Below, piece by piece: positions 3,839 through 56,538 of a stretch of 64,000 nucleotides of DNA. Under the pieces are notes generated by a model. It made no database searches. It saw nothing but the letters and a program-made list of their open reading frames with translations, and had not been told where the DNA came from. The DNA comes from Prevotella intermedia ATCC 25611 = DSM 20706 (GTDB lineage Bacteria; Bacteroidota; Bacteroidia; Bacteroidales; Bacteroidaceae), in assembly GCF_001953955.1 (NCBI RefSeq), contig NZ_CP019300.1:992001-1056000 (forward strand), written 5' to 3'. The position numbers were made by a program, and so were the translations under genes. Numbering within the stretch: position 1 is the stretch's first letter; the number at the start of each line of letters is the position of its first letter.

Positions 3839-4036
3839 TTTGTAAAGATAATTTATAAGGAAAACGGTAATTTCGATTTGGCATTGCGAAAGCGTAGGTT
3901 TTGCAATGCAAAAGAGCCGCTTTTACCGTGCAAAACCTACGCTTTTGGAACGCAAAACAATAGGTTTTATAAAGCGTTGATAACGAGCTTGTTACACGAG
4001 AGATATGTTTATAAAAAATCTTTACATAATTATCGC
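3839..4036 (+). repeat. Dispersed intergenic repeat, copy A
   Basis: About 200 bases filling most of the gap between two convergent genes. It starts with TTTGTAAAGATAATT, passes through ATTTCGATTTGGCATTGCG and ends with a TTTATAAAAAATCTTTACA-type tail. Three arms lie in the core. In this copy the cassettes are CGTAGG (arm 1), GAGCCG (arm 2) and CCTACG (arm 3), so arms 1 and 3 are complementary. The same framework recurs at 11529, 22609, 37636, 47050 and 56343. Bases 3701-3838 hold no gene that I can recognise. Confidence 0.85.
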
Positions 4037-4051
4037 TTGTTTTTAGCTTGT

Positions 4052-4495
4052 CTATCTCACTTTTACACAAACTTCTCCGTAGTATCCTTTTGCTTCGCTG
4101 TGCAGCAAAAAGCCATATACGGCAGCCTGCTTGCGGGCAGAAAGACTGTGGTATAGGTTGGTTTGGTTGTCTATATGTCCTCGTTCGGTGTGCTGAAGGT
4201 CGTAAATGCAAATGCGCTCGGCGTGTTGTGGATCGGCTTTGGCGTAGCCTAAGAACAGTCCTTCCTCGTCTTCGTCTATTGCGTTGGCTATGTCTAAATG
4301 GTAGTGTAGGTAGCCTGCACGACACAGAAGTTCGCCATCGGTGTAGAATTCCTTAACTTCGCTGAGGCTTAAGGGCTTGTATGGCAAAGGCTCCACGTAT
4401 TTTTGTGGTTTGCTTCGGGCTATTTTCGTTCGTTTTGCCAGCCATATTATGCAGAGCACCGTAAATAGAATGAGGGCGATGTTTACAATTGTCAT
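4052..4495 (-). CDS. Hypothetical protein with one N-terminal membrane segment
   Basis: About 147 residues from ATG 4493-4495; a GTG start at 4519 would add eight residues. Residues 1-20 are hydrophobic (MTIVNIALILFTVLCIIWLA) and followed by basic residues, so the protein is probably anchored in the inner membrane with the rest in the cytosol. The remainder is a soluble acidic domain with no motif I recognise (DEDEEGLFLGYAKADPQHAE, GYYGEVCVKVR). Weak ribosome-binding context is usual in Bacteroidetes. The gene is convergent with the radical SAM gene, with repeat copy A between them. It contains one of the very few GATC sites in the window (4231). Family unknown. Confidence 0.6.
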   Translation of the reverse strand: MTIVNIALILFTVLCIIWLAKRTKIARSKPQKYVEPLPYKPLSLSEVKEFYTDGELLCRAGYLHYHLDIANAIDEDEEGLFLGYAKADPQHAERICIYDLQHTERGHIDNQTNLYHSLSARKQAAVYGFLLHSEAKGYYGEVCVKVR

Positions 4496-4638
4496 ATTCC
4501 AATGTGTTTGTTTAGGCACTGCGATGATGCAATGTGTGTGAAATATTTCTATTTACAAAGATATTGAAAAACTATTAAAAAATATCATTTTTCGTAACGA
4601 AAAATCCTACTTTCTCATCTTTTATAATATAAAAGGCG

Positions 4639-4646
4639 TATCTTTG
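4639..4646 (+). promoter_or_regulatory. Bacteroidetes -7 element (TATCTTTG) for the alpha-2-macroglobulin gene
   Basis: TATCTTTG matches the TAnnTTTG -7 consensus and lies in an AT-rich stretch about 180 bases upstream of the likely ATG (4826). The transcript would begin near 4653 and would contain the inverted-repeat element at 4675-4769 in its leader. Confidence 0.5.
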
Positions 4647-4674
4647 TACCATATAAAGACTTGCTCTTTGCCGA

Positions 4675-4769
4675 TAGGAACGTGATAAATCACGCCCCTA
4701 CAAGTGGAGGCGGTCGCGATGCAACAAGCAGCAGAGAGAGGTGTAGGGGTGCGGTTTATCACGTTCCTA
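4675..4769. repeat. MITE-like inverted-repeat element
   Basis: Two 28-base arms (4675-4702 and 4742-4769) are inverted copies with 25 of 28 matches. The outer ends read TAGGAACGTGATAAA and the inner ends CCCCTACA, around a 39-base GC-richer centre. It sits in the leader between promoter and start codon of the alpha-2-macroglobulin gene. A solo arm with 22 of 24 matches lies at 22496-22519. It resembles a small non-autonomous element but no transposase is present in the window. Confidence 0.7.
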
Positions 4770-4825
4770 ACCATTCAAAGCAACTGCTGGCATATATTTT
4801 AGTTATTTCTAAAGCAGAGAAGGTT

Positions 4826-7800
4826 ATGAAAAAACTATTAACTGTACTTACATTATTATTTATGGTGTCATTCAATTTGTTTGCACAGAGCTACGCTGAG
4901 TTGTGGAAACAAGTAGATATAGCAAGGGGAAAAGACTTGCCCAAGACACAAATAAGTGTCTTAAAGAATATTATAAGCAAGGCTCAAAAAGAGAAATCGT
5001 ACGGCAACTTGTTGGCAGCCGAGTTGCTGACCTCAAGTTTGCAGACGAGAATATCGCCCGATTCGGTTGATTCGGAAAAGGCTCGTTTGAAGAAACTTTG
5101 CGCTAAAGCCGAGACAACAGACAAGGTGTTGTATGCTGTTTACAACTGTGCGTTGGGCAGAATCTTTAAATACGATGAGGACAAAGACGAGTTGATTGCT
5201 GGTTATTTCGATAAAGCGATGGCAAATCCAGCCTTGTTGGCAGGTGTTCAGTGTAGTAAGTACACACCGTTGATAAAAGAAGGAAAGGACGACGCCATCT
5301 TCAAGAACGACCTTCTCCACGTTATTGCTTTCGAAGCAGGGCAGTACGACAAAGCAAGCAAGTATTACACATCGGTGGGAAACCGCGAGGCAGCTTGTTA
5401 CAGTGCCTATATGGGTGTAAAAGAAGAAAACAACAAGGAGGCTTTAGATTCGCTCATTGCGCTCTATGGCGACTTGCCTGTATGTGGAAATGTGGCAGTA
5501 GCGAAATACAAATACTTGAAAGACGAAGAGGAGATAGATGTAAAGCAACGCATCGAATATATAGATAATGCCTTGAAACGTTGGGGAACGTGGAAAAACA
5601 CCAACTATCTGCGCAACGAACGCGAAGCCCTTACTGCCCCAATGTTCCAAATGTGGGTATCAGAAAATGTGGGTGCGCCTCATAAGGAGCGAATCTTGAA
5701 AGATGTTAAGATTAGGAATATCAACGATTTAACGCTGACCATAACGCGCACAACGCTGACGGGCGACGATAATTTATCGCCCCGCAACTCTAATAGTTTA
5801 GCAAAAATAAAGACGAAACTGTTGCCTGCTACTGCGCAGACCGTAAAGCGCACATATTCAGGCAATGCTCCTTACGAGGTAATTGAGGACTCGTTGGAAC
5901 TCCCTCGCTTAGATGCAGGTGTCTATCTGTTCGAGTTGGCATCGTCGAACAATCGGTTAGCCCCACAATACGAACTCTATTACGTTACCAACTTGTATGT
6001 AATAGCAGAAGAACAGCCCGCAAGCAAGATACGGTATGTAGTGGTTAATTCAACAACAGGGCAACCTATACCCAATGCTAAGCTAAAGCTGAAGAAGCGT
6101 GGCTACTACAAACAACCGCCCGTTATAAGATATGTTGAGACCAATGAGCGTGGCGAGGCTTATTACAATTATGGTGAGCACGAACCAGACGAAGTATATG
6201 TCTCTACCAATACGGACAAAGCGTGCCCTAACTCGTTCATTAGAACAAATTATTATTACGGTAAGGAAAGAATAGAATTCGAGGTTTACGACCTCTTTAC
6301 TGATAGGCAAGTGTACCGTCCTGGGCAAACTGTGCACGCTTCGCTCCTTGTTCACAAGAAGAACAATAAGGAATTGAAGAGCGAGGCTGTTGCCAACAAG
6401 ACTGTAAAGCTTACATTGCGCGATGCCAACTATGAAGATGTAGTGTCGAAAGAAGTTGTTACCGACGAGTTTGGTACGGCTGCTGCCGATTTTGAGTTGC
6501 CCAAAGGTTTGCTCACAGGAGCATTTTCTATCTATGCCAATGATGAAGATGGAACTTCAGTAAGCTTTAATGTAGAAGAATACAAGCGTCCGACGTTTAC
6601 GGTAGAGATAGACGAATATAAAGAAAAATATGCCATTGGCGATACTATCAAGCTGAAAGGACGTGCAAAAGCTTATTCGGGTATGCCTGTACAGGGTGCA
6701 GAGGTGTTATACACAGTCAATCGTAACCCAGTATTATGGTGGTGGTATAGTAATGAAAACAGCGAGATAGTTTTTGAAAGCAAAGCCATAACCGATGAAA
6801 AGGGTGAGTTCGATATTGAATTACCTTTCATATTCCCCGATGAAAAGAAAAGTAAGAAGTCGGCAAATCGTGGTTATTGGCGGTCAGCAAAGTTTTATAA
6901 CTTTGTTGTAGATACCGATGTAACCGACCTTGCAGGCGAAACACGGTCGGCAAGTGCATCGTTGCCATTAGGCACGAAGACCACAGTGCTGACGAGCAAT
7001 ATGCCCGATAAGGTGTTGAAAGATAAGTTGCGTCAGCTGAAATTCTCTTATTTGAACGCTGCGGGCAAACCTATTGAAGGGAAAGTTCGTTATGCCATAG
7101 CACCTTATAAGAAGGAAAAGCCATCGTTTGGCAATTATACAACAGTGGAAGCCAATAAGGATGTAGACTTGAAACCACTGCGTTCGGGTCGTTATATGTT
7201 GCAAGCCATCTGCGAGAACGATACGTTAGAGCAAGAGTTCGTTGTGTTCTCAATGGAAGACAAACGCCCTGTTATAGAAACACACGATTGGTTCTATATA
7301 AGCGGAAATAAGTTCCCAAGCGACGGAAAGCCTGTTTACGTGCAGTTTGGTGCCACCGATGCCGACCAGCACGTACTTTATTCTATCTTCTCAGGCAATA
7401 AAGTGCTTGACAGTGGGGCTATCGACCAAAGCAATAGCCTTACCACATGGAAGCTTACGTATAAGGAAGAGTATGGCGATGGCATTGTCGTGAACTTTGC
7501 ATGGGTGAAGAATGGCAAGCTGTATAAGCACAATGAAAGTATTGCACGCCCTATGCCCGATAGACATTTGAACGTGAAGTGGACTACCTTCCGTAATCTT
7601 TTGCTGCCCGGACAGAAAGAAGAATGGACGCTTAACATAACCTATCCTGACGGAAAACCTGCAAAGGCGCAGCTCATGGCAACGCTTTACGACAAGAGTC
7701 TTGACCAGATAGACGAACACTCGTGGTACTTCGAGCCAGCATACAGTAACAATTTCCCGAGCTATATTGACTGGAGTAAAATGATTTATTCATCTTTAAG

Positions 7801-10465
7801 CCTCAGTAGGCTCGCCAATTATAAGTCTTTGAGTCTACCTCTGCTGTCGCTTGCTAAGTTTGATACACGCTTTGTAGATAACTTTGAAAAACAACAAATC
7901 TTTATCAGGGGTTATGGAAGTCGTGCAGAAACCAAGGCTTATGCAAAGATGGAAATGATGGCAGTTGTAAAATCAGATGATGCAGAGTCTCGTAAATCTG
8001 AAGAAGCACGTAGTTCTGTTAAATTCACCGCACCTGTTATAAAAGAAGATTCAGCCATTCGTAATGAGGCAGAGGCGGACTATGCTGTTGCCGACTCTGT
8101 TTCTGGTGTTGTAAAAAGAGCTACTAATAACGTTCAGATGCGTGAGAATTTGAACGAAACAGCGTTCTTCTATCCCCGCTTGAATACCGATGCCAACGGC
8201 AATGTAAGCATTAAGTTCACGCTGCCAGAGAGCCTTACAACTTGGCGTTTTATGGGACTTGCACACGACAAAGACATAAATTATGGTATGCTAACCGACG
8301 AAGTGGTAGCCAAAAAGACGGTAATGGTGCAGCCCAATATGCCTCGTTTTGTTCGTATGGGCGATGAAGCAATGCTATCGACACGTATTTTTAACTCGTC
8401 AGATAAGGCTGTTAAGGGCAAGGCAACCATAGAAATACTTGATGCTGAAACCGAAAAGGTGCTCTACACAGATAGTAAAGACTATGCTTTAGAGGCGAAT
8501 GCGACAACAACGGCAACGTTCTCGTTGGCAAGTTTGCTGTCGGAAGAAGGTGCAAACAAGCTCTCTATTGCCGACCAAAGTATGCTTATCGTGCGCATCG
8601 TAGCCAGTGGCGATGATTATTCGGACGGCGAACAGCAATATTTGGCAGTGCTTCCAAATCGCGAATACGTGGTTAATACCTATCCATTTACGCAAAACAA
8701 GGCAGGAGAGAAGCGCATTGACCTTACAAAACTGTTCCCAACAAACACTACAGACCAACGATTGACGGTTGAATATACCAATAATCCAAATTGGTTGATG
8801 ATACAAGCCTTGCCGTATGTTGCTGATGCGAACGAGCTAAACGCCATTAGCTTGGTGTCAGCCTACTATGCCAACAGCTTGGCGAATAAGATTTTGAAGA
8901 CGTCGCCTAAGATACGACAGACCATTGAAAGCTGGAGAAACGAGCAAGGAAACGAAACTTCTATGATGTCGGCATTGGAAAAGAACCAAGACTTGAAGGA
9001 ATTTGCCCTTAAAGAAACGCCTTGGGTAATGGAAGCAAAGAACGAAAGCGAGCAGAAGCAAACGCTTGTGCGTTTCTTTGATGATAATCAGATAAAGTAC
9101 AACCTGTCGTCTACAATCGAAAGACTTGGCAGATTACAGAACCCCAATGGCTCTTTCTCTTGGTGGGAGAAAATGCCAGGCAGTTTCTATATGACGGTTG
9201 AAGTGGTGAAAACCTTAACCCGCTTGAACGTGTTGATGGGCGAAAAAGACGAGGAAACGGAAGATATACTGAACTCAGCCTTTGCTTTCTTAGACAGAGA
9301 AGTGGCTGAACGTGTTGCAGAGATGAAACGTTTGCAACGCAAGGGATACAAGAATATCTTCCCTTCTGATGCGCTTTGCGACTATCTGTATAGCAATGCG
9401 TTGGCAAAACGCAAGACAACGGCAGATATAACCTATCTTATCGACTTGTTGGCAAAGAAGCCTGTCGATTTAACAATATATGGCAAGGCAAACACGGCGG
9501 TTATCTTGCAGCAGTATAAGCAAGTTCAGAAAGCAAAAGAATATCTGCAGAGCATCAAGGAATATACTGTTTACAAGGAGGAAATGGGCAGATATTTCGA
9601 TACGCGGAAGGCTTATTACAGTTGGTTCGACTATAAAATACCAACGCAAGTAGCTGCGATAGAATCGTTTAAGACGATTGCTCCGACCGACAAACAAACG
9701 ATTGAAGACTTGCAACGTTGGCTTTTGCAGTCGAAACGCACGCAGGCTTGGGATACGCCAGTGAACTCTGTAAATGCTATTTGGGCATTTATGAACAACG
9801 GACAGTGGACGATGGACAATGGCGAAGCGAGCGTATTGAAACTCGACGGAAAGGTTATGGAACTTCCAAAGGCTACTGCAGGCTTGGGATATGTGAAGGT
9901 AACAAAGCCAGTGGCAGTTAATTCACATAACGAAAGCGAAGGCAAGCAAGTTGCAAACACGTTTACCGTAGAGAAAACAAGCAGCGGAACAAGCTGGGGA
10001 GCAGTCTATGCGCAGTTCTTCCAGCCTGTTACAGAGATAAAGGCAAACAATGCAGGACTTACCGTAAAGCGCGAATTGTTTGTGCGAAACAGCAACAACA
10101 ATGCAAAAGATGCCGTTCAGGCAAAGGTTGGCGATAAGGTTGTGGTGCGCATAACCATTGTGGCAGACCGTGATTATGACTTTGTTCAGGTTTCCGACAA
10201 GCGTCCAGCGTGTCTTGAACCTGTATCGCAAATCAGCGGATACCAATACGGTGGCTACTACATAGCACCGAAAGACTACTGCACAAACTATTATTTCGAT
10301 ATGATGGCAAAGGGAACTCACGTTGTGGAAACAGAGTATTTTGTAGACCGTGAGGGCGTTTATCAGTCGGGAACGTGCACCGCACAATGCGCTTATGCGC
10401 CTGAATATACAGGTCGCGAAGGAGCAGTTAAAATAAAAGTGAATAGCAACAATGCTTCAAATTGA
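4826..10465 (+). CDS. Alpha-2-macroglobulin family protein, thioester-less, exported
   Basis: A bacterial alpha-2-macroglobulin of about 1,879 residues, thought in this family to act as a periplasmic protease trap. The ATG at 4826 is chosen because it gives a clean signal peptide (MKKLLTVLTLLFMVSF, ending LFAQ|S); the frame is open back to 4661 but that part covers the inverted-repeat element. There is no lipobox cysteine, so a soluble periplasmic protein is expected. MG2 hallmarks DRQVYRPGQTVHA lie near residue 495. The A2M core (TLPESLTTWRFMGLAHD, then PRFVRMGDEAMLSTRIFN) lies at about 1,130-1,190. The alpha-helical domain follows, with NPNGSFSWWEKMPGS near 1,440. The CxEQ thioester is absent: the matching stretch reads WLMIQALPYVADANELNAIS. 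The stop overlaps ispH by 14 bases. No penicillin-binding partner gene is adjacent. Confidence 0.93.
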   Translation: MKKLLTVLTLLFMVSFNLFAQSYAELWKQVDIARGKDLPKTQISVLKNIISKAQKEKSYGNLLAAELLTSSLQTRISPDSVDSEKARLKKLCAKAETTDKVLYAVYNCALGRIFKYDEDKDELIAGYFDKAMANPALLAGVQCSKYTPLIKEGKDDAIFKNDLLHVIAFEAGQYDKASKYYTSVGNREAACYSAYMGVKEENNKEALDSLIALYGDLPVCGNVAVAKYKYLKDEEEIDVKQRIEYIDNALKRWGTWKNTNYLRNEREALTAPMFQMWVSENVGAPHKERILKDVKIRNINDLTLTITRTTLTGDDNLSPRNSNSLAKIKTKLLPATAQTVKRTYSGNAPYEVIEDSLELPRLDAGVYLFELASSNNRLAPQYELYYVTNLYVIAEEQPASKIRYVVVNSTTGQPIPNAKLKLKKRGYYKQPPVIRYVETNERGEAYYNYGEHEPDEVYVSTNTDKACPNSFIRTNYYYGKERIEFEVYDLFTDRQVYRPGQTVHASLLVHKKNNKELKSEAVANKTVKLTLRDANYEDVVSKEVVTDEFGTAAADFELPKGLLTGAFSIYANDEDGTSVSFNVEEYKRPTFTVEIDEYKEKYAIGDTIKLKGRAKAYSGMPVQGAEVLYTVNRNPVLWWWYSNENSEIVFESKAITDEKGEFDIELPFIFPDEKKSKKSANRGYWRSAKFYNFVVDTDVTDLAGETRSASASLPLGTKTTVLTSNMPDKVLKDKLRQLKFSYLNAAGKPIEGKVRYAIAPYKKEKPSFGNYTTVEANKDVDLKPLRSGRYMLQAICENDTLEQEFVVFSMEDKRPVIETHDWFYISGNKFPSDGKPVYVQFGATDADQHVLYSIFSGNKVLDSGAIDQSNSLTTWKLTYKEEYGDGIVVNFAWVKNGKLYKHNESIARPMPDRHLNVKWTTFRNLLLPGQKEEWTLNITYPDGKPAKAQLMATLYDKSLDQIDEHSWYFEPAYSNNFPSYIDWSKMIYSSLSLSRLANYKSLSLPLLSLAKFDTRFVDNFEKQQIFIRGYGSRAETKAYAKMEMMAVVKSDDAESRKSEEARSSVKFTAPVIKEDSAIRNEAEADYAVADSVSGVVKRATNNVQMRENLNETAFFYPRLNTDANGNVSIKFTLPESLTTWRFMGLAHDKDINYGMLTDEVVAKKTVMVQPNMPRFVRMGDEAMLSTRIFNSSDKAVKGKATIEILDAETEKVLYTDSKDYALEANATTTATFSLASLLSEEGANKLSIADQSMLIVRIVASGDDYSDGEQQYLAVLPNREYVVNTYPFTQNKAGEKRIDLTKLFPTNTTDQRLTVEYTNNPNWLMIQALPYVADANELNAISLVSAYYANSLANKILKTSPKIRQTIESWRNEQGNETSMMSALEKNQDLKEFALKETPWVMEAKNESEQKQTLVRFFDDNQIKYNLSSTIERLGRLQNPNGSFSWWEKMPGSFYMTVEVVKTLTRLNVLMGEKDEETEDILNSAFAFLDREVAERVAEMKRLQRKGYKNIFPSDALCDYLYSNALAKRKTTADITYLIDLLAKKPVDLTIYGKANTAVILQQYKQVQKAKEYLQSIKEYTVYKEEMGRYFDTRKAYYSWFDYKIPTQVAAIESFKTIAPTDKQTIEDLQRWLLQSKRTQAWDTPVNSVNAIWAFMNNGQWTMDNGEASVLKLDGKVMELPKATAGLGYVKVTKPVAVNSHNESEGKQVANTFTVEKTSSGTSWGAVYAQFFQPVTEIKANNAGLTVKRELFVRNSNNNAKDAVQAKVGDKVVVRITIVADRDYDFVQVSDKRPACLEPVSQISGYQYGGYYIAPKDYCTNYYFDMMAKGTHVVETEYFVDREGVYQSGTCTAQCAYAPEYTGREGAVKIKVNSNNASN

Positions 10466-11528: not shown

Positions 11529-11726
11529 CGATAAAACTGTAAATATTTTTCACAAACCTGTCTATCGTGTAACTGTTTGTTTATCAACGTATTGCAAAAC
11601 CTGTTGTTTTGCATTCCAAAAGCGTAGGTTTTGCACGGTAAAAGCGGCTGTTTTGCATCGCAAAAGAGCCGCTTTCGCAATGCCAAATCGAAATTGTAGT
11701 TTTCCTAACGAATAATCTTTACAAAA
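11529..11726 (-). repeat. Dispersed intergenic repeat, copy B (reverse orientation)
   Basis: Read on the minus strand it has the full framework: TTTGTAAAGATTATTCG, ATTTCGATTTGGCATTGCG, three cassette arms, then GGAATGCAAAACAACAGG and a TGTGAAAAATATTTACAG tail. The cassettes in minus-strand order are CGGCTC, CAGCCG and CCTACG. Arms 1 and 2 are complementary except at one base. Confidence 0.85.
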
Positions 11727-12049: not shown

Positions 12050-12113
12050 CGTTTAAATTAAAGTCTTTAAGAGTATCATTAAATACTTATTATACAACGC
12101 TGAAAGATGAAAA

Positions 12114-13117: not shown

Positions 13118-13939
13118 ATGGAAAAGAACTTTGAACAATTTATGTCTCAACTTCACGAAACAAACCAAACATTGGATTTCTTCTGCGATTTCGAAAAGAT
13201 TTCCAATAATGTTGATAATATCAAGTTGAGCCTTTGTATGTTGAACAGCCTTATTGGTACGACCGACCTTCGCAAGAGCGTAGAAGCAATTTGGCATCGT
13301 GACAAAACAGCTTTCAGCATTATGGATATTCTTATTGCAGTTCGCAGTGCAGGAAAAAGGGTAGTTCTCAATTCCAAGGGTGAATGTATCGTTCTTGATA
13401 GGCTGTTTGAAAGTGTTGATGGAGTTATTGAATACCTTGAAGATACAGGTCTTGCAGAAATCTTCAGAGAGCGTAAAATCAAAGATTTAGTAGATTATGT
13501 ATTTGGTATTGAGACAGGTCTTGATAGCAATGCTCGCAAAAATAGAAGTGGAGTTGTAATGGAAAATGTGGTTGGAAAAATACTTTCAGACAACGATATA
13601 ACCTATCGTAAGGAAGTTTATTCTACTGAATGGCCTGACCTGCAAGCTGTACTTGGTGATGATAAGAAACGTTTTGACTTTGTTATTGAAACGACGGAAA
13701 AGAACTATCTTATAGAAGTTAATTTCTATAGTGGTGGTGGCTCTAAACTTAACGAGATTGCTCGTTCTTATTCAGATATAGCTCTGAAGATTAATTCTGT
13801 TGAAGGTTTCGAGTTCGTTTGGGTTACTGATGGAGTTGGTTGGAGGTCTGCAAAGAATAAACTTCAAGAAGCCTACAACATCATTCCAAGTGTTTATAAT
13901 CTTACAAGCGTTTCGAGTTTCATTGATTTGATTAAGTAA
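13118..13939 (+). CDS. DpnII/MboI-like type II restriction endonuclease (predicted GATC)
   Basis: A 273-residue protein resembling the DpnII/MboI/Sau3AI-site endonucleases. The N-terminal half is helical (NIKLSLCMLNSLIGTTDLRK, FSIMDILIAVRSAGKRVVL). The C-terminal half carries the likely nuclease core: GVVMENVVGKIL, KRFDFVIETTEKNYLIEVNF, then YSGGGSKLNEIARSYSDIA. D and E of FDFVI and IEVNF are the likely metal ligands of a PD-(D/E)xK-like fold. It follows the methylase by 8 bases, as expected for a coexpressed pair in which the methylase is made first. The operon ends at the 24-base-pair terminator hairpin at 14007. The gene itself has no GATC site by my reading. Confidence 0.85.
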   Translation: MEKNFEQFMSQLHETNQTLDFFCDFEKISNNVDNIKLSLCMLNSLIGTTDLRKSVEAIWHRDKTAFSIMDILIAVRSAGKRVVLNSKGECIVLDRLFESVDGVIEYLEDTGLAEIFRERKIKDLVDYVFGIETGLDSNARKNRSGVVMENVVGKILSDNDITYRKEVYSTEWPDLQAVLGDDKKRFDFVIETTEKNYLIEVNFYSGGGSKLNEIARSYSDIALKINSVEGFEFVWVTDGVGWRSAKNKLQEAYNIIPSVYNLTSVSSFIDLIK

Positions 13940-22519: not shown

Positions 22520-22608
22520 GCACCGAAGAAAAAGCATTCTTTTTAGGAAATCTAATTTCTCTATAATTCATAGAAACCTTTAAACTAAACACAAAGAAAC
22601 CCCTCTAC

Positions 22609-22808
22609 TTTGTAAAGATTATTCGTAGGAAAAATGATAATTTCGATTTGGCATTGCAAAAGCGGCTGTTTTGCAACGCAAAACAGCCGCTTTTACCGTG
22701 TAAAACCTACGCTTTTGGAATGCAAAACAATAGGTTTTGCAATATGTTGATAACGAGTTAGTTATGCAATACTTGTGCTTGTGAAAAATATTTACACGAT
22801 TATCGCTC
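22609..22808 (+). repeat. Dispersed intergenic repeat, copy C
   Basis: Full framework: TTTGTAAAGATTATTCG, ATTTCGATTTGGCATTGC, three arms, then GGAATGCAAAACAATAGG and GTGAAAAATATTTACACG. The cassettes are CGGCTG, CAGCCG and CCTACG. Arms 1 and 2 are fully complementary here and would form a long hairpin. Confidence 0.88.
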
Positions 22809-37357: not shown

Positions 37358-37635
37358 AGAAAATAAAATAAGATTTAGGATAATAAGCATATTTTTTTTA
37401 ATTGCTGTGTTGTTTAGTTGTTTATGCTTTGATAGAATGTGTGTTTTTACTCGTTACTATGCTTTGGTTCGTTGTAAAATGGAAATAGCTAAAAGGATTA
37501 GATACCATTAAAAGGAAGTTTGCCTTGGTTTTTTCTGAATGTCAGTTCGGCATAAAGGGAGTTGGTTAAGCAAGCTATCTCGTAGATGTTTTTCTACAAA
37601 TCCACTGATGAAACAGTGAGAGTTATTTCATTTAA

Positions 37636-37838
37636 TTTTATAAAAATAATTCCGTTAAAAAGTGGTAACTGTGCTTTGGTGTTGCGAAAGCGGCTGTTTT
37701 GCGATGCAAAACCTACGCTTTTACCGTGCAAAAGAGCCGCTTTTGGAGTACAAAACAATAGGTTTTGTAATGACCTGATAGATAGAGAATTATGCAATAG
37801 TTATATGTGTGAAAAATATTTACACACATGTTGCTTTA
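37636..37838 (+). repeat. Dispersed intergenic repeat, copy D (permuted cassettes)
   Basis: The framework is weaker at the left but clear from GTTGCGAAAG to GTGAAAAATATTTACACA. The cassettes are CGGCTG, CCTACG and GAGCCG. Compared with copy C, the CCTACG cassette has moved from arm 3 to arm 2. Confidence 0.8.
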
Positions 37839-38036
37839 TTTTCGTTCATATAATAGCGTGAAGATGCTTCATTTCTTTCTGATGATAAGTGTATCAAATC
37901 ATTATCAGTTCTTTCTTTAAGTAAAATAAATTATATGGCGTTATTCTTATATTGAACTCACGTTATTTGATGCAAAAAGTTTTAGTGGACAGTAACATTT
38001 TTTATTATAGATGCCTTAAATATCAATTTAATTGAT

Positions 38037-46750: not shown

Positions 46751-47049
46751 AAGTTTATGGTTTTATAAAGATATTTTTCTAAGATTATTATCAGCAGTAA
46801 TACCGTCTTGACCCTTGAAATAGGATATTGCAAAGATACGAACTTTAGTCGTAACGATGGAATAATGATGCTGAAAGTTTTATTTTGTGGGAAGATAGCC
46901 GAATAATTATTGGGCGAAAGTTCAGTATGAATCTATTTTTCTGATTGTAAATAAAGTATAATAAATCCGAATCCATTAACATTTGGAAATGAAGTGAAAT
47001 AGAAACGTGAAACAGTTAAAACTCTGTTTGAAAGTTGAAAAATAGATTC

Positions 47050-47146
47050 TCGTTTTGCGAAAGAGCCTCTTTTGCGATGCAAAACAGCCGCTTTTAGCTT
47101 GCAAAACCTACGCTTTTGCAGTGTGGAAGTGTAGGTTTTGTAGCTT
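47050..47146 (+). repeat. Dispersed intergenic repeat, copy E (core only)
   Basis: Only the three-arm core is kept: TTTTGCGAAAGAGCCTC, GATGCAAAACAGCCGC and GCAAAACCTACGCTTTTGC. The cassettes are AGCCTC, CAGCCG and CCTACG. The left and right framework sequence of the other copies is lost or unrecognisable. Confidence 0.75.
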
Positions 47147-48792: not shown

Positions 48793-50264
48793 TTGCGGAG
48801 GAAATCTACTGACTTAGCAATGTGTGGTGCCATAAATTGGTCGTTTTCAACGAATGGCACATCCTTACGATAAGCCTCGAAGATAGCTTCGATGGCAGGA
48901 GAAGACTTCAATGGGTGACGGAATTCGAGTGCCTGTGCCGCATTGAAAAGCTCGATAGCGAGTACACGCTCTGTATTCAGCACTACTTGGTAGAGCTTTG
49001 TGGCTGCGTTCGCACCCATGCTGACGTGGTCTTCCTGTCCTTGCGAAGAAGGAATGCTGTCGGCAGAAGCTGGTGTACAGTACATCTTGCTCTGGCTAAC
49101 GATAGAAGCAGCAGTGTATTGTGGAATCATGAAACCGCTGTTCACGCCTGGTTTAGCTACCAAGAAGCTTGGAAGGTCGCGTGTGCCGGATACGAGTTTG
49201 TAGATACGACGTTCTGAAATGTTGCTGAGTTCGCAAAGGGCAATGGCAAGGAAGTCCATTGGTTGTGCGATAGGTTCGCCGTGGAAGTTGCCTGCAGAGA
49301 TAACGAGGTCTTCGTCTGGACAAACAGTTGGGTTGTCGGTAGCTGCGTTCACTTCAATGTCGATTACAGATTTCACGTAGCGTATGGTGTCTTTTGATGC
49401 GCCGTGAACCTGTGGCATACAACGGAAAGAGTAAGGGTCTTGCACGTTTACCTTTGGTTGTTTGATGAGTTCGCTGCCTTCGAGCAACTCACGAATGCGA
49501 GCAGCTGTTTCGATTTGTCCTTGGTGAGGACGAACAGCATGTACGGCGTGTGTGAATGGTTCGATACGACCATCGTAAGCTTCGAGCGACATTGCACCAA
49601 TCTTGTCTGCCCAATCGCTCAATCGCTGTGCTTGGAGCAAGCACCAAACAGCAAATGAGTTCATGTTCTGTGTACCGTTGAGCAATGCCAAACCTTCTTT
49701 TGAAACGAGCTGGATAGGTTGCCAGTTCATCTTCTTCAGCATTTCCTCGCCTGAAACAACTTCACCGTTCATTTCTACACTGCCGATACCCAAGAGTGGC
49801 AAGCATAGGTGAGCCAATGGAACGAGGTCGCCCGATGCACCGAGTGAGCCTTGCATGTAAACAACGGGGTAAATATCGTTGTTGAAGAAATCAATCAAAC
49901 GCTCTACAGTTACCAATTGGCAAGCTGAGAAGCCGTAGCTTAGCGACTGAATCTTGAGCAGCAACATAATCTTTACGATTTCGTTTGGCACGCGGTCGCC
50001 AACACCACAGGCGTGCGACATCATAAGGTTCTTCTGAAGGTCAGAGAGTTGTTGCTTGTCGATAGAGATTTTGCACAACGAACCAAAGCCAGTTGTTACG
50101 CCATAGATAGGTTTGTCTGATGATTCAATCTTCTTGTCCAAGTATTCACGGCAACGAACAATGCGGTTGCGTGCGTCGTCAGAAAGTTCGAGTTTAATGT
50201 TGTTTTCAATGATTTCACCAATTCTTTCAATAGAGAGGTGTTCTGCACTTATCTTATGTGTCAT
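48789..50264 (-). CDS. hutH: Histidine ammonia-lyase
   Basis: First step of histidine breakdown, giving urocanate and ammonia. The 491-residue protein carries the MIO-forming triad A143-S144-G145 in QGSLGASGDLVPLAHL, at the position usual for the family. Other hallmarks are YGVTTGFGSL near 58, LLNGTQNMNSFAVW, RPHQGQIETA, YSFRCMPQVHGA and PSSQGQEDHVSMGANAATKL. The tyrosine of YGVTTGFG is the catalytic base. It lies between hutU and hutI in the operon. Confidence 0.97.
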   Translation of the reverse strand: MTHKISAEHLSIERIGEIIENNIKLELSDDARNRIVRCREYLDKKIESSDKPIYGVTTGFGSLCKISIDKQQLSDLQKNLMMSHACGVGDRVPNEIVKIMLLLKIQSLSYGFSACQLVTVERLIDFFNNDIYPVVYMQGSLGASGDLVPLAHLCLPLLGIGSVEMNGEVVSGEEMLKKMNWQPIQLVSKEGLALLNGTQNMNSFAVWCLLQAQRLSDWADKIGAMSLEAYDGRIEPFTHAVHAVRPHQGQIETAARIRELLEGSELIKQPKVNVQDPYSFRCMPQVHGASKDTIRYVKSVIDIEVNAATDNPTVCPDEDLVISAGNFHGEPIAQPMDFLAIALCELSNISERRIYKLVSGTRDLPSFLVAKPGVNSGFMIPQYTAASIVSQSKMYCTPASADSIPSSQGQEDHVSMGANAATKLYQVVLNTERVLAIELFNAAQALEFRHPLKSSPAIEAIFEAYRKDVPFVENDQFMAPHIAKSVDFLRK

Positions 50265-50346
50265 AATTGTATTTAAAAGTTAACTTGTTTCTTTAAAATG
50301 AATATTCACAGATAAGGATATGCCTTATCTGTGAATACGTTTGTTT

Positions 50347-52344: not shown

Positions 52345-52357
52345 TTTTGTATAGTTT

Positions 52358-54061
52358 TTATAGTTTATCTTCTACAATCTTCATTATTTCAGCTTCAAGT
52401 TCATTAGCCTTCTTAATGAGCTCGTTAGCTTCGCTTACAAGCTTGTCAGCAGTTTCGCGGTCTTTCAGTCCTGAAGCGTTAATCTTAACGTTCAAGCCTG
52501 CACCTAGTACGGCAGCACGGGCTGCGAGTACGCCTACACCAGCGTCAGAAACACTGTTTGGATTACCTTCTTCTGCCATTGCTTTGCAGAGTTCAAATAC
52601 CTTGAATGATGCTTGCATAGTGTGCAAAGGTACTTGTGTTGCGAACAAAGTTGCAGCTTGGATAGCAGCAGAGCGAGCTTCTTTTTCCTCGTCAGTCTTT
52701 TTAGGAAGACCAAATGCCTCCATAATGCGGTTGAAAGCTTCGGTATCTTCGTCTACAAGTACCATAAGCTCAGCCTGAATCTTCTGTCCCTTGTCTGCCC
52801 AGTTGCTAAATTCTTCCCAACGGTCGTCCCAACCAGCCTTGTGGCTTGAGAGATTGGCAACCATTGTTCCCAATGCAGCACCTAAAGCACCCATATAAGC
52901 AGAGATGGTACCACCACCTGGAGCTGGTGATTCGCGTGATGTTTCGTCAGCAAAACCTTTCACTGTAAGGTCGATGAGCTTCGCTGTCTTATTCTCGTCT
53001 TCCAAAAGGTACTCGATAACCTTTTCGCGTGGGTTGAATTCCTTCAAGTCGTCCAATCCCATTGATTTGATAGCAATCTGCAAGATGTCTTCTTCAGGAA
53101 TACCTGTAGAACGGTTTTGTTTTCTCAAGAAATACTTACCTGCTTCTACCAATGTGCGCTTTGGTATCAAACCAACGATTTCTGTACCTGTAACACGAAC
53201 GCCACGGTTTTGTGCGCAACGGCAAACCTCGTCGAATGCAACGTGCAATGGAGTAACGTTAATATCGGTAATGTTCATTGAAACCTGTGCAATGCCGTAT
53301 TCGTCGATGAACCAACCTATTGCCTTTGTAGACTTCAATGTACCTGGAATCATAATTGTTTTTCCGTTTTCGTCCTTCATTGGCTTGCCAACAGGTGAGC
53401 CTCCTTCGCGTTGTGGACGGCCTTTTTCGCGTACGTCGAATGCAATAGCATTGGCACGACGGGTAGAAGTGGTATTCAAGTTGAAGTTTGTTGCAATCAA
53501 GAAGTCGCGGGCACCCACTGCAGTACAGCCTGTACGTGCAACGCCTTCGTCCCATGCACGAGCACCAAAGTCGGGTGCTTCAGCTTCAACGGTCATTCTT
53601 TCTGCCAATCCTTCGTACTCGCCCTTACGGCAAATAGCGAGGTTGCGGCGTTCAGGAGTTCTTGCAGCAGCTTCGTAGCAATAGCAAGGCACTTGCAGTT
53701 CGTTGGCGATACGTTCTGCCAACTTGCGTGCCAATTCAGCACATTCTTCAAGTGTGATGCCTGCCACTGGGATTAATGGGCAAACATCGGTAGCTCCCAT
53801 ACGTGGGTGTGCACCGTGATGCTGGCGCATATCAATGAGTTGTGCAGCCTTCTTTACGCATTGGAAAGCAGCTTCCAATACAACATCAGGAGCACCAACA
53901 AAAGTAATTACTGTACGGTTTGTAGCTTCACCTGGGTCTACATCAAGCAGTTTCACGCCTTTTACGCGTTCAATTTCGTCAGTTACTTGCTTAATAATAG
54001 CCTTGTTACGTCCCTCGCTAATGTTAGGAACACATTCAATGATTTGTTTTTCTTGTACCAT
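52358..54061 (-). CDS. ftcD: Glutamate formimidoyltransferase / formimidoyl-THF cyclodeaminase fusion
   Basis: A 567-residue bifunctional enzyme that moves the formimino group of formiminoglutamate to tetrahydrofolate and then releases ammonia, giving methenyl-THF. Residues 1-325 are the transferase: IIECVPNISEGRNKAIIKQV, HHGAHPRMGATDVCPLIPV with the catalytic histidine, GCTAVGARDFLIATNFNLNT. Residues about 360-567 are the cyclodeaminase helix bundle: SPAPGGGTISAYMGALGAAL, EEGNPNSVSDAGVGVLAARA. This fusion is known from animals and Bacteroidetes. As first gene of the hut operon it joins histidine breakdown to one-carbon metabolism. No hutG-type hydrolase is present here. Confidence 0.97.
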   Translation of the reverse strand: MVQEKQIIECVPNISEGRNKAIIKQVTDEIERVKGVKLLDVDPGEATNRTVITFVGAPDVVLEAAFQCVKKAAQLIDMRQHHGAHPRMGATDVCPLIPVAGITLEECAELARKLAERIANELQVPCYCYEAAARTPERRNLAICRKGEYEGLAERMTVEAEAPDFGARAWDEGVARTGCTAVGARDFLIATNFNLNTTSTRRANAIAFDVREKGRPQREGGSPVGKPMKDENGKTIMIPGTLKSTKAIGWFIDEYGIAQVSMNITDINVTPLHVAFDEVCRCAQNRGVRVTGTEIVGLIPKRTLVEAGKYFLRKQNRSTGIPEEDILQIAIKSMGLDDLKEFNPREKVIEYLLEDENKTAKLIDLTVKGFADETSRESPAPGGGTISAYMGALGAALGTMVANLSSHKAGWDDRWEEFSNWADKGQKIQAELMVLVDEDTEAFNRIMEAFGLPKKTDEEKEARSAAIQAATLFATQVPLHTMQASFKVFELCKAMAEEGNPNSVSDAGVGVLAARAAVLGAGLNVKINASGLKDRETADKLVSEANELIKKANELEAEIMKIVEDKL

Positions 54062-54400
54062 TTTTTATTTTGTATATTAATTTTTTAGGCATAGTTTCTT
54101 TACGGTGTAAAATTAAGAATAAGGTGGCAAACTACAAAATATTTAGCCTTAAACTATTTAAAAAAATGAAGTTTTACATCATTATGTCATAAAAAGCCAA
54201 AGTTTTTAACTAAAATAAGCTATTTCTCCTTACGCTGTGTCTAAATCGCTCTTTTGGTTTTTCGTGTCATCTGACCTTGCAAAATGAAGCGTAAAAGAAT
54301 ATTTTTTCTGCAAATACTGTTTCTTTCAAAAAAAAAATCTATATTTGCAATAATAATATAAGGTAGAACACAGAAGTCTGCCCATCTAAAATCGAAAACA
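54062..54400. other. Intergenic region upstream of ftcD and the epimerase gene
   Basis: 339 AT-rich bases between divergent genes. I see the plus-strand -7 element at 54340 but no clear minus-strand -7 element for the hut operon and no recognisable regulator site. Confidence 0.45.
54340..54347 (+). promoter_or_regulatory. -7 element (TATATTTG) for the exported epimerase gene
   Basis: TATATTTG fits TAnnTTTG, 54 bases before the ATG. Confidence 0.55.
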
Positions 54401-55357
54401 ATGAAACACCTAAGCTTTGCCATAATAGCTTGTTTTTTCTCTCTTGTGCTATCGGCGCAAGATATACAAACCTTTCAGTTAATAAACGATACGGGTATGA
54501 AAGCCTTGGTAAGCAACTACGGCGCACGTCTTATGCAGCTCGAAGCATATAACTGGAATGGAAGATTGGAACCTGTAATAAAAGGCTATAAACATATATC
54601 CGACTACAAAGACAACACGATACTTGGTGCAACGATGATGAGTCTTGACGGAAAAGTAAGTCCTGCGTTGGCGGATAAGGTCTGGGAAGTAGTCAGTGCC
54701 GACCACCAATCCGTAACTTTTCGTTATATTGCAGACAGCAAAGACGGCGAGTTTGACGGCAAAATGAACTTCTCGGTAACCTATACGCTGTCCGACCAAA
54801 ACGCACTTGACGTTGATTACAGAATGACTTCCACCGCCCCAACACGCTATAAACTTACCAACGGCATCGTTTTCAACCTGTCGGGCGACCCCAATCGTTC
54901 TATTCTAAAGCAGCATTTGTGGATAGATTCACATAAAACAAATGTGTTCGATAAGGATATGCGACTTACGGGCGAGCAGGAAAACGTGCGGTCTACGCCG
55001 TTGAACTTCATTCAACCGAGGGAATTGGGCGAGCGCATCAACGATTTGCAAAATGGATACAACCACGCCTTTCAGTTGCGACACCCTGCCAACGTGCAGA
55101 AACCTGCTGCCATTCTTTTCGACGAGCAGAGCGGCAGAGTGCTGACGGTTTATACATACGAACCAACTTTGCGCATAAACTCGTATGGTAAAAACAGTAC
55201 GGGCATTTCTTTCCAACCCCTTCATACGGGTTACAATGATAATAAGGAAAAGATAAGTACAAATATCAATCCGGGACAGGTATTCCACGCCGCAACGGTG
55301 TTTATCTTCACCACCGACCCTCCCTTGATAATGAGGAGAGAACGTGCCACTGAATAA
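54401..55357 (+). CDS. Exported aldose 1-epimerase-like protein
   Basis: A 318-residue protein of the galactose mutarotase family, which interconverts alpha and beta anomers of sugars. A signal peptide at residues 1-19 (MKHLSFAIIACFFSLVLSAQ) places it in the periplasm. Family features include LVSNYGARLMQLEAYNWNGR near the N-terminus, the TYTLSDQNALDVDYRMTSTA strand and LTNGIVFNLSGDPNRSILKQ, where the usual histidines are partly replaced (family: NLTNHSYFNL..G.....H). The C-terminal GISFQPLHTGYNDNKEKIST is close to the catalytic-Glu region. The changed residues suggest a diverged substrate or reduced activity. Confidence 0.88.
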   Translation: MKHLSFAIIACFFSLVLSAQDIQTFQLINDTGMKALVSNYGARLMQLEAYNWNGRLEPVIKGYKHISDYKDNTILGATMMSLDGKVSPALADKVWEVVSADHQSVTFRYIADSKDGEFDGKMNFSVTYTLSDQNALDVDYRMTSTAPTRYKLTNGIVFNLSGDPNRSILKQHLWIDSHKTNVFDKDMRLTGEQENVRSTPLNFIQPRELGERINDLQNGYNHAFQLRHPANVQKPAAILFDEQSGRVLTVYTYEPTLRINSYGKNSTGISFQPLHTGYNDNKEKISTNINPGQVFHAATVFIFTTDPPLIMRRERATE

Positions 55358-55413
55358 AATCATAGAAAAGATTAAATTCTTTTAATTTCTTTGGCTGTTA
55401 GGCTCCAATATTC

Positions 55414-55421
55414 TAAATTTG
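55414..55421 (+). promoter_or_regulatory. -7 element (TAAATTTG)
   Basis: TAAATTTG fits TAnnTTTG and ends 6 bases before ATG 55428. It overlaps the alternative start at 55419, so the later start is preferred and the mRNA would be nearly leaderless. Confidence 0.55.
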
Positions 55422-55427
55422 CATTGT

Positions 55428-56246
55428 ATGAAGAAGATATTTGTCATAGCCATAGCACTGCTTCTTGGTATAAGAATGTATGCGCAAGATGTTTATAATA
55501 ATGTTGATACGACTGTTGTCGCACCAATAGAATCTTCACGTCTGCAAGGATACAGACAAGCAACAGAGGCTGAAAAGGAATATGCACGCCTTTTGGCAGA
55601 AGAACGCGAGCAGCAACAGATAGACAGAAACCTGCCGCTTGTCGATGAAAACGGGCAAGCCATAACCAATAACGATATGTATTATCCTTATTGGGGTTAT
55701 GGCTGGGGATTCAATACGTGGCGTTTGCACAAGGGATTGAACGTAAACCTCAGTGCATCGGTATTTGCCAACTTGGGCAATGGCTACGGCCACGGTGCTG
55801 GTTTCGTTCAAGACGTATCGCTGATGTATGTTACCAACCTATCGAAAAAAGCCACATTGGCGGTAGGGGGCTATATAAATAATGTAACCTATGGCGGTTC
55901 CAACTATACCACTGCAGGTGTAAATGCCATTTTTGGCTACCGATTCAACGAACATTGGAGTGCATACGCTTTTGTTCAGAAAGCGTTCAATTCAGGCAAC
56001 TTCGCTCCTTGGGCAATGGGATATGGCGCATTTGGTGGTTACGGTATGGGCTTTTCGCCAATGTATGCAGGCTGGGGTTACGGAATGGCTGACAGTAGAT
56101 TTATGGACAGAATAGGTGGCGGTGTTACTTATCAATGGGGAGAACACAATCAGAACTCGCTCTCGATAAACATAGAATACGACCACGTGCCCAATCAGCG
56201 TAGCGGATTTTACGATTTCAATAGATACAGCTATCCTACCAGATAG
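55428..56246 (+). CDS. Exported Gly/Tyr-rich protein, possible outer-membrane barrel
   Basis: About 272 residues with a signal peptide at 1-18 (MKKIFVIAIALLLGIRMYAQ). An N-terminal linker (RLQGYRQATEAEKEYARLLA) precedes a beta-rich region with alternating aromatic and small residues. Examples are YYPYWGYGWGFNTWRLHKGL, LAVGGYINNVTYGGSNYTTA, VNAIFGYRFNEHWSAYAFVQ and GYGAFGGYGMGFSPMYAGWG. The last segment SLSINIEYDHVPNQRSGFYD could be the closing strands. This fits a small outer-membrane beta-barrel, but there is no named family I can give. Confidence 0.75.
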   Translation: MKKIFVIAIALLLGIRMYAQDVYNNVDTTVVAPIESSRLQGYRQATEAEKEYARLLAEEREQQQIDRNLPLVDENGQAITNNDMYYPYWGYGWGFNTWRLHKGLNVNLSASVFANLGNGYGHGAGFVQDVSLMYVTNLSKKATLAVGGYINNVTYGGSNYTTAGVNAIFGYRFNEHWSAYAFVQKAFNSGNFAPWAMGYGAFGGYGMGFSPMYAGWGYGMADSRFMDRIGGGVTYQWGEHNQNSLSINIEYDHVPNQRSGFYDFNRYSYPTR

Positions 56247-56342
56247 TAGTTTTCAAGGAATGTAACAGTTCGGTAGATACAACGTGGTGGGAGAGTGATT
56301 CTCTTTTTGTTGCATAAGGCAAATACTGAAAAATCTCTTTCG

Positions 56343-56538
56343 TTTTGTAAAGATAATTCGCACGAAAAATGGTAATTTCGGTTTGACGTTGCGAAAGTGT
56401 AGGTTTTGCGCTGCAAAACAGCCGCTTTTACCGTGCAAAACCTACGCTTTTGGAATGCAAAACAATAGGTTTTGTAAAGCATTGAAAACGAGTTAGTTAG
56501 GTAAAAGATATTCTTATAAAAAATATTTACACTTTTAT
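56343..56538 (+). repeat. Dispersed intergenic repeat, copy F
   Basis: Full framework from TTTTGTAAAGATAATTCG to TTATAAAAAATATTTACAC. The cassettes are TGTAGG, CAGCCG and CCTACG. Arms 1 and 3 pair with one G-T wobble, as in copy A. Confidence 0.85.

What the first reader, a model, noticed from the sequence alone, without database searches (positions are those of the whole stretch)
3839..56538. Dispersed ~200-bp intergenic repeat family with swapped 6-base cassettes
Six copies (3839, 11529, 22609, 37636, 47050, 56343) share a fixed framework such as ATTTCGATTTGGCATTGCG, ACCGTGCAAAA and GGAATGCAAAACAATAGG. Three arms carry exchangeable 6-mers drawn from CGTAGG, CGGCTG and CGGCTC and their complements. 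The cassette strings are A: CGTAGG/GAGCCG/CCTACG; B: CGGCTC/CAGCCG/CCTACG; C: CGGCTG/CAGCCG/CCTACG; D: CGGCTG/CCTACG/GAGCCG; E: AGCCTC/CAGCCG/CCTACG; F: TGTAGG/CAGCCG/CCTACG. The choice decides which arms can pair (1-2 in C, 1-3 in A and F), so copies look like alternative hairpin designs on one scaffold. All are intergenic, in both orientations, at convergent, divergent and tandem junctions. They encode no plausible protein. This might be a non-autonomous element, a family of switchable RNA structures or a protein-binding site.
Basis: seen in the sequence. Interest (0 to 1): 0.8.

Follow-up and report, generated by a model that had tools for sequence, protein, structure and literature searches.

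The report
Word-swapping hairpin repeats in Prevotella
Hundreds of short repeats lie between the genes of this Prevotella genome; they appear to be remnants of a small jumping element whose hairpin is built from interchangeable seven-letter words, and those words differ between two species at the same places in the genome while the scaffold stays, a behaviour I found no earlier report of for this otherwise known repeat.

Summary
The six copies are 6 of about 300 in the genome, very probably PINSR, the 188-bp Prevotella intermedia/nigrescens repeat (Naito 2015), whose authors reported no terminal repeats and no known function.

Three things go beyond the passages read. (1) The 188-bp unit is the core of a longer MITE (15 of 17 full-length copies 427-567 bp): terminal repeats (ACGTGAGTTCG...), 7-bp flank duplications (71/119 matches, 44 expected) and a 1,027-bp IS982-family element with the same ends in the genome. 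(2) The 'cassettes' are 7-mers on an A4-N7-T4-N7 lattice. At 12 of 13 intact insertions shared with P. falsenii a whole word differs; words 1 and 3 are about 60% identical, the last three linkers 92-100%, flanks 83-86%. One word (W) fills 93 of 255 P. falsenii arms and 0 of 279 here. Words combine so that arm 1 pairs with arm 2 or 3 more often than shuffling gives: strong in P. falsenii, weaker here. (3) The lattice recurs with other dictionaries in distant Prevotella.

Best reading: a decayed MITE family whose hairpin words are exchanged among copies with pairing largely kept. Molecular function is unproven.

The parts
3838..4026 (+). copy A, ~189-bp core; lattice array 3877-3968; words GCGTAGG/GAGCCGC/CCTACGC/CAATAGG (arms 1-3 can pair)
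11538..11726 (-). copy B, core; array 11596-11687; words GCGGCTC/CAGCCGC/CCTACGC/CAACAGG (arms 1-2 pair with one mismatch)
22608..22796 (+). copy C, core; array 22647-22738; words GCGGCTG/CAGCCGC/CCTACGC (arms 1-2 pair perfectly). The shared insertion in P. falsenii (L279:16958) has arms 2 and 3 in swapped order
37538..37964 (+). copy D, the window's full-length MITE (427 bp) with both terminal inverted repeats; core about 37636-37824; array 37675-37766; words GCGGCTG/CCTACGC/GAGCCGC
37539..37556 (+). left terminal inverted repeat of copy D (3 mismatches to ACGTGAGTTCGGYATAAG)
   Evidence: 2 matches in the window against 0.08 expected
37946..37963 (-). right terminal inverted repeat of copy D (2 mismatches)
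47048..47139 (+). copy E, array only, degenerate; words GAGCCTC/CAGCCGC/CCTACGC
56343..56531 (+). copy F, core; array 56382-56473; words GTGTAGG/CAGCCGC/CCTACGC (arms 1-3 pair with one G-U). P. falsenii (L184) lacks about 330 bp at this place

Best explanation
The six repeats are copies of what is very probably PINSR, the conserved core of an old MITE. SHOWN: full-length copies end in terminal repeats, are flanked by 7-8-bp duplications more often than chance, and share their ends with a 1,027-bp IS in the same genome whose open 320-aa frame is an IS982-family transposase. The natural conclusion is that such a transposase spread the family; most copies that could be compared are shared with P. 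falsenii, so they have long stayed put. SHOWN: the core carries a lattice of A4-N7-T4-N7 (11 bp a step) whose 7-mers come from a small dictionary. At insertions shared with P. falsenii whole words differ while the locus keeps its own flanks, and species-specific words occupy many loci. SHOWN: word combinations favour a stem between arm 1 and arm 2 or 3. INFERRED: words move between dispersed copies, and between arms of one copy, by short ectopic gene conversion or hairpin-templated copying, with selection or the copying process itself keeping the stem. INFERRED: the hairpin, in a transcript or as a DNA cruciform, is the part still under constraint. Its task (transcript end or stability, or a protein docking site) is not known.
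For: MITE: outer arms and terminal repeats; both ends in 17 copies, 4 of 93 own and 13 of 85 P. falsenii (4 and 10 of these were cut by a stretch end and could not be judged); 15 of the 17 are 427-567 bp, two are 346 and 368 bp; 7-bp flank matches 71/119 against 44.0 +/- 4.7, 0 of 4000 shuffles as high (k=8 P 0.019; k=5, 6, 9 not significant); IS with the same ends at 9 places read, 7 with 6-8-bp duplications; transposase NF033520 IS982, 281.7 bits, cut-off 130. Word exchange: 12 of 13 shared loci (7 of 8 in the strictest set) have a whole-word change; identities word1 .59, word3 .60, linkers .87-1.00, flanks .83/.86; W in 0/279 own arms and 93/255 P. falsenii arms, Z in 54/279 and 3/255. Pairing: P. 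falsenii 53 of 70 copies with a perfect 7/7 partner against 38.8 with arm 1 permuted (0 of 5000); own 45 of 80 against 35.2 when arms 2 and 3 are permuted (P 0.008); folding energy z -4.4 and -6.1 (own), -5.6 and -5.6 (P. falsenii); same sign in G010 and G012. Arms 2 and 3 are one X and one R word in 66 of 66 own copies with exact words.
Against: With arm 1 alone permuted, the own-genome pairing excess is weak (6.49 against 6.41, P 0.08; perfect partners 45 against 42.9, P 0.31; exact dictionary pairs 40 of 66 against 39.8, made of a 1-3 excess, 27 against 19.8, and a 1-2 deficit, 13 against 19.9). The 'one X, one R' rule does not hold in P. falsenii (same class in 49 of 86 against 55.0); there only exact repeats are avoided (6 against 18.4). 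G167 and G039 show no pairing excess. One shared locus (own #22) has no partner left for arm 1 in P. falsenii. 80 of 93 own copies show neither terminal repeat. No conversion tract was traced to a donor copy. The linkage test is weak: element flanks show little linkage among themselves. Permutations treat copies as independent. No transcript or protein data.
Confidence: 0.7

Rival explanations
1. The words are recognition sites of one or more DNA-binding proteins. The dictionary differs between species because the protein's specificity changed; pairing is a by-product of using the same sites in both orientations.
For: Exact words are kept in an otherwise diverging element (66 of 93 own copies have three exact dictionary words). 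Dictionaries of the species read differ while the A4/T4 spacing is fixed. Species-specific words occupy many shared loci.
Against: It does not predict that arm 1 prefers combinations with its own complement. No candidate protein was sought or identified.
Confidence: 0.2
2. The element is kept for transcription: a two-way hairpin that ends or protects transcripts of neighbouring genes.
For: Stems of up to about 17 bp whose 3' side ends in TTTT, possible on both strands. More frequent at convergent gaps of 250 bp or more (27 of 44) than divergent ones (15 of 43).
Against: Only four T at the stem's end; the terminator scan around copy A does not pick the array (only this copy was scanned). In tandem gaps arrays lie a median 225 bp past the stop codon; copies occur at all junction types and, in tandem gaps, in both orientations (28 same, 19 opposite). 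The element itself lengthens the gap, so the junction bias is weak.
Confidence: 0.2
3. Old subfamilies and drift only: each copy keeps the words that it was inserted with, and nothing is exchanged.
For: In the own genome the combination x with order X,R is missing, as a simple tree would give.
Against: Shared insertions carry different words in 12 of 13 loci. Word classes show no linkage with element flanks (a weak test). W fills 13 of 39 arms in P. falsenii and 0 of 39 here at the same 13 loci, which needs replacement in one of the two species.
Confidence: 0.05
4. Intrinsic DNA curvature: phased A/T tracts are what matters (nucleoid binding), and the words are filler.
For: A4/T4 tracts every 11 bp in several species.
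Against: In the 10 genomes tested the 10-bp version gives 0-2 hits against 35-481 for 11 bp, and the 12-bp version occurs in 12 of 200 genomes, although such spacings would also give curvature. Words are exact and tend to pair. Curvature itself was not computed.
Confidence: 0.07
5. REP-type palindromes moved by a RAYT (Y1) transposase.
For: Palindromic, intergenic, many copies.
Against: No Y1 transposase match in 5 of the 6 array-bearing genomes searched, including this one; only G010 has two. The element has IS982-type ends and flank duplications instead.
Confidence: 0.02

Closest known systems
[quoted passage not shown] 2015, PMC4755523; passages and section 3.4 read)
   Same: Length (~189-bp homologous block), intergenic, probably non-coding, hundreds of copies, a two-replicon genome, presence in P. 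falsenii JCM 15124.
   Different: The paper reports no terminal inverted repeats and separates PINSR from MITEs; here longer copies with both ends, duplications and a matching IS are found. In what I read it describes no word lattice, word exchange, pairing or genus-wide relatives. Its consensus (Figure 4A) is not held, so identity was not checked base by base.
MITE239 / MITE700 and ISPg3 of Porphyromonas gingivalis (Table 2 of Klein et al. 2015, PMC4596501; seen as a passage)
   Same: Ends ACGTGAGTTCGATATAAAGGAA (MITE239) and ACGTCAGTTCGA (ISPg3) resemble ACGTGAGTTCGATATAAG here. Naito et al. say that ISPi1 of P. intermedia shares ISPg3's ends and 7-bp duplications.
   Different: No lattice array is described for them in the passages read. 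The paper files ISPg3 under IS5; the transposase here meets the NCBIfam IS982 model and stays under the cut-offs of the IS5 models.
BrickBuilt MITE of P. gingivalis (PMC4596501; abstract, sections 5 and 8 and passages read)
   Same: An intergenic MITE around short repeated units that can fold.
   Different: 23-nt head-to-tail direct repeats without spacers and TIRs like GAGACCTTTGCA; here alternating A4-N7-T4-N7 with words in both orientations and other ends.

Membership tests
MITE | terminal inverted repeats | tested here: met
   17 full-length copies; ends of about 18-21 bp. Not recognisable on either side in 80 of 93 own and 47 of 85 P. falsenii copies.
MITE | target-site duplication | tested here: met
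   7-bp flank matches 71/119 against 44.0, 0 of 4000 shuffles; k=8 P 0.019, k=5, 6, 9 not significant. One empty site with a 7/7 duplication (P. falsenii L241:6198 against own L032).
MITE | too short for a transposase; IS with the same ends in the genome | tested here: met
   346-567-bp copies; 1,027-bp IS with the same ends and an IS982 transposase.
MITE | mobility by the IS transposase | not testable with these tools
   needs a transposition assay
PINSR | 188-bp intergenic repeat, ~180 copies, P. intermedia/nigrescens group | tested here: met
PINSR | consensus sequence of Figure 4A | not tested
   the figure is not held
PINSR | no terminal inverted repeats (as published) | tested here: not met
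   longer copies do have them; the 188-bp core alone does not include them
BrickBuilt | 23-nt tandem direct repeats with TIR like GAGACCTTTGCA | tested here: not met
   period 11/22 with inverted words; ends ACGTGAGTTCG
REP/RAYT | Y1 (RAYT) transposase in the genome | tested here: not met
   0 matches in G000
Rfam RNA family | match at the gathering score | tested here: not met
   0 in the window
Structured RNA | paired changes beyond shuffling | tested here: met
   weak for arm 1 in the own genome, none in G167 and G039; not specific to RNA rather than DNA hairpins
Structured RNA | transcription | not testable with these tools
   no RNA data

The most novel reading that the evidence does not exclude
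Prevotella carries a genus-wide class of combinatorial hairpin elements: an invariant 11-bp A4/T4 lattice into which each species writes words from its own small dictionary, with words replaced at fixed genomic sites in complementary pairs and driven through the whole copy set of a genome (concerted evolution). This would be a paired-word exchange system, possibly read by a species-specific partner. The 11-bp step equals the turn of an A-form RNA helix (recalled, no call), which would put one A/U tract on the same face at every turn of the stem.
Probability: 0.35. Interest if true: 0.8.

Novelty: new variant of a known kind. Interest (0 to 1): 0.62.

Why it matters
It gives a source for a repeat described in 2015 without one (a MITE with IS982-family ends) and shows an unusual mode of evolution: several hundred long-settled copies whose seven-letter words turn over faster than their surroundings, yet mostly stay within a dictionary and tend to keep a stem. 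That makes concerted evolution of dispersed bacterial repeats, and hairpin-templated copying, measurable in strain collections. The lattice also offers a simple pattern for finding such elements across Prevotella.

Tried and rejected
Simple pairing story ('the word choice decides which arms pair, and that is the whole constraint'): in the own genome arm 1 shows no excess of exact complements (40 of 66 against 39.8). The clearer constraint there is that arms 2 and 3 hold one X and one R word (66 of 66; 2000 shuffles gave at most 46 of 66). Ends of the 188-bp core as terminal repeats: an imperfect TGTAAA match was seen by eye and dropped once the outer ends were found. Terminator scan at copy A: nothing at the array. 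Rfam: none. RAYT: none here. Clean 188-bp insertions: the six candidate empty sites viewed show inserts of about 275-456 bp instead, which led to the outer arms. TTGATTATCAA-like motif about 20 bp beyond the arrays: the recurring position is suggestive, but it exceeds one set of shuffles clearly only in G010; not used as evidence. Ends of this type in the other species: 2 hits in 20 G010 loci, 3 in 13 G167 loci, 0 in 7 G039 and 0 in 8 G012 loci, so the lattice is not tied to this one IS.

Limits: the gene caller is home-made. P. falsenii copies at the loose threshold (117) include off-register doubles; later tests use 85 with a score of 42 or more. Of 20 own copies with both flanks found in the P. 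falsenii sequence held, 17 were called shared, 1 empty and 2 other; I used 13 of the 17 and dropped #33, #40, #64 and #74, whose P. falsenii match was off-register or truncated. Further candidates in loci L151-L190 and in P. aurantiaca L098 were not analysed. Linkage test: 80 of 93 copies; pairing tests: 80 of 93 and 70 of 85; exact-word table: 66 of 93 and, in an earlier set, 86 of 108. Lattice loci of the other species were chosen because they match the pattern. Outside the genus only counts and a capped list were seen; G209, G525, G623, G426, G452, G467, G571 and G580 (11-85 hits) were not read, and the listed matches of G474 and G578 look like AT-rich noise. PMC8040213 (thousands of candidate structured RNAs in human microbiomes; passages read) lists palindromic candidates of Bacteroidetes and two confined to Prevotella; its tables were not open to me, so overlap with these arrays cannot be excluded.
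Full report
WHAT IS THERE. The window holds six copies of one repeat. The window is bases 992001-1056000 of the larger of two contigs (1,965,935 and 708,235 bases). An 18-mer of the framework hits 157+156 places in the genome with up to 3 mismatches, against 0+1 for the backward control. In an even sample of 864 kb (the window plus 40 stretches of 20 kb) a gapless scan finds 93 copies, 44 in 464 kb of the large and 49 in 400 kb of the small contig, that is about 290 per genome. A profile search of the same sample gave 96 merged places, 77 of them with the whole core. No Rfam family matches the window.

WHAT IT IS CALLED. The length of the homologous block (about 189 bp), the intergenic places (90 of 93), the two-contig genome and the presence in P. 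falsenii (exact 18-mer in many contigs of DSM 22864; 250 hits in G017) fit PINSR, reported by Naito et al. 2015 (PMC4755523; passages and section 3.4 read) with 177 and 184 copies in two P. intermedia strains. Their consensus figure is not held, so I did not compare letters. They state that PINSR has no terminal inverted repeats, is distinct from MITEs, and that its function and source need study. A search for 'PINSR' with 'Prevotella' returned only that paper. Searches for related terms listed nothing that, by title and start of abstract, describes the lattice or the word exchange; the library lacks most subscription journals, and the tables of PMC8040213 were not seen.

THE FULL ELEMENT. Sequence beyond the 188-bp core is alike among many copies: 91 of 178 on the left and 106 of 178 on the right have similar outer arms. 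Fourteen copies aligned reach terminal inverted repeats, left AACGTGAGTTCGGCATAAGAA, right TTATACCGAACTCACGTT. With up to 5 mismatches in 18, both ends are found in 4 of 93 own copies and 13 of 85 P. falsenii copies; one end only in 5 and 15, neither in 80 and 47, and 4 and 10 were cut by a stretch end. Fifteen of the 17 are 427-567 bp, two 346 and 368 bp. The seven bases outside the two ends match at 71 of 119 positions against 44.0 +/- 4.7 for shuffled pairings (0 of 4000 as high); with 8 bases 59 of 136 against 47.7 (P 0.019), with 5, 6 and 9 no significant excess (P 0.49, 0.13, 0.054); some single copies fit 8 better than 7. Copy D of the window is full length, 37538-37964.

THE MATCHING IS. 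Places with the same end but no array led to a 1,027-bp element (1,029 in one) read at 9 places. Seven of the 9 have perfect 6-8-bp duplications; L035 and L289 have none; two of the seven (L051, L053) share the same flanking bases in reverse and may be one event. Its 320-aa open frame meets the NCBIfam IS982 model (281.7 bits, cut-off 130; the other models listed stay under their cut-offs) and Pfam DDE_Tnp_1_3. It is probably ISPi1, which Naito et al. describe as related to ISPg3 with 7-bp duplications; no letters were available to check. A solo MITE with the same ends also exists (L281-L285, 240-241 bp in four and 262 in one; four of five with 6-8-bp duplications). In 7 of the 8 full-length repeats compared (of 17) the right part resembles it at 73-86% over 29-93 bp; the eighth, copy D, shares only the end.

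WORDS DIFFER AT FIXED LOCI. Of 20 own copies whose two flanks were found in the P. falsenii sequence held, 17 were called shared, 1 empty and 2 other. In the 13 intact shared pairs, 12 have a whole-word change (3 or more of 7 letters); in the 8 strictest, 7. Identity by region: word1 54/91, word2 79/91, word3 55/91, word4 90/91, linkers 1-5 .89.87.96.92, 1.00, left arm .83, right arm .75, flanks .83 and .86. Examples: own zXZ against wXW (L034:11742 and L136), yXY against wXW (L040:11599 and L148), and window copy C yYX against yXY (L279). In the first two both arms of the stem changed together; in #22 (yXY against yXX) arm 3 changed alone and the pairing is gone. Word classes show no linkage with element flanks beyond r2 of about 0.16, but the flanks show little linkage among themselves (mean r2 .02-.03 between left and right parts and within the right part), so this test is weak.

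PAIRING. Arm 1 permuted among copies: P. falsenii best-partner score 6.59 against 6.12 (0 of 5000 as high), perfect partners 53 of 70 against 38.8 (0 of 5000); own 6.49 against 6.41 (P 0.08), perfect partners 45 of 80 against 42.9 (P 0.31). Arms 2 and 3 permuted: best-partner score 0 of 5000 as high in both genomes; perfect partners own 45 against 35.2 (P 0.008), P. falsenii 53 against 34.9 (0 of 5000). Folding energy: own -36.0 against -35.0 (arm 1) and -33.6 (arms 2, 3); P. falsenii -37.9 against -35.1 and -35.4; z between -4.4 and -6.1 from 30 permutations each. Other species, A-words permuted among arrays, 60 permutations: G010 (19 arrays) z -5.8, G012 (7) z -3.4, G167 (13) z 0.4, G039 (6) z 0.5; each was folded on one strand only. 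So a pairing preference is seen in four of six sets, and is weak in the own genome for arm 1 alone.

THE WIDER CLASS. The exact pattern A4N7T4N7A4N7T4 occurs in 130 of 200 genus genomes, up to 481 hits (own; one array can give several hits); by my reading of the table 23 of 200 have 20 or more. With N8 it occurs in 12 of 200, with 20 or more only in G151, and not in the own genome. With N6, in ten genomes that have 35-481 N7 hits, 0-2. Loci read in G010, G167, G039 and G012 (48) have 6-14 nodes, mostly 8-11, with their own dictionaries: GATGACC/GATAACC/CATCACC/GGTAACC; GCATAGC/CCTATGC/CATCATC; GCATAGC/GCTATCC; GCATAGC/GCAGCCC; a few of these loci (such as L322, L350) gave only a poor array. 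Two G053 arrays were also seen; the other genomes with high counts were not read. In 247 order genomes 118 have a hit; the places listed outside the genus (a capped list) look like AT-rich chance, and several genomes with 11-85 hits were not read. The PINSR form itself is frequent only in G000, G017 and, less so, G360 among 398 genus genomes.

PLACE. By a home-made gene caller 28 of 66 convergent, 47 of 363 tandem and 15 of 69 divergent gaps hold a copy (for gaps of 250 bp or more: 27 of 44, 47 of 112, 15 of 43). That is compatible with avoiding promoters, and too weak to name a function.

HOW IT MOST LIKELY WORKS. Shown: an element with MITE anatomy and IS982-type ends; copies old enough to be shared with P. 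falsenii; words that differ at shared sites; species-specific words at many loci; combinations that favour a stem. Inferred: spread by the IS transposase; exchange by short gene conversion between copies or by copying across the hairpin, with the stem kept by selection or by the copying itself. Unknown: what the stem does.

Noticed in passing
G151: This Prevotella genome has 23 hits of the 12-bp lattice (8-letter words such as TCGCGCGG, TCACGCGG) and 5 of the 11-bp one: possibly a variant lattice with another step.
   Followed up: no
L216 (G162): A single PINSR-type array with own-genome words sits in a genome that otherwise shows almost none: possible lateral transfer.
   Followed up: no
L098, L132, L137, L176 (P. 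aurantiaca JCM 15754): Exact framework 18-mer hits in P. aurantiaca; Naito et al. name only four positive species in their PCR, which included P. aurantiaca OMA31. L098 aligns with own L058:12793 at the spacing of a shared insertion.
   Followed up: partly
L051:14094-15120 and L053:2440-3466: Two IS982 copies on the small contig have the same flanking bases in reverse orientation: a duplicated or inverted segment.
   Followed up: no
L221, L222, L223 (G145, G131, G123): Another recurring motif that fits the lattice pattern, AAAATAAATATTTTTCTTCATGAAAA-like, of different character (AT-rich).
   Followed up: no
G010: Several pattern hits of this genome contain a constant AAAATAAATTATTTTT-like unit in either orientation.
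   Followed up: no
window:12114-13109 +: A D12-class adenine DNA methyltransferase lies beside copy B; the 273-aa frame at 13118-13939 that follows was not examined.
   Followed up: no
window:57152-58108 +: A notable domain pair: hemerythrin HHE domain plus LuxR-type DNA-binding domain, beyond copy F.
   Followed up: no
L046:19428, left flank: A long hairpin (GCGTTTTACTGT...ACAGTAAAACGC, seen by eye) precedes this copy; it is missing in P. falsenii together with the copy.
   Followed up: no
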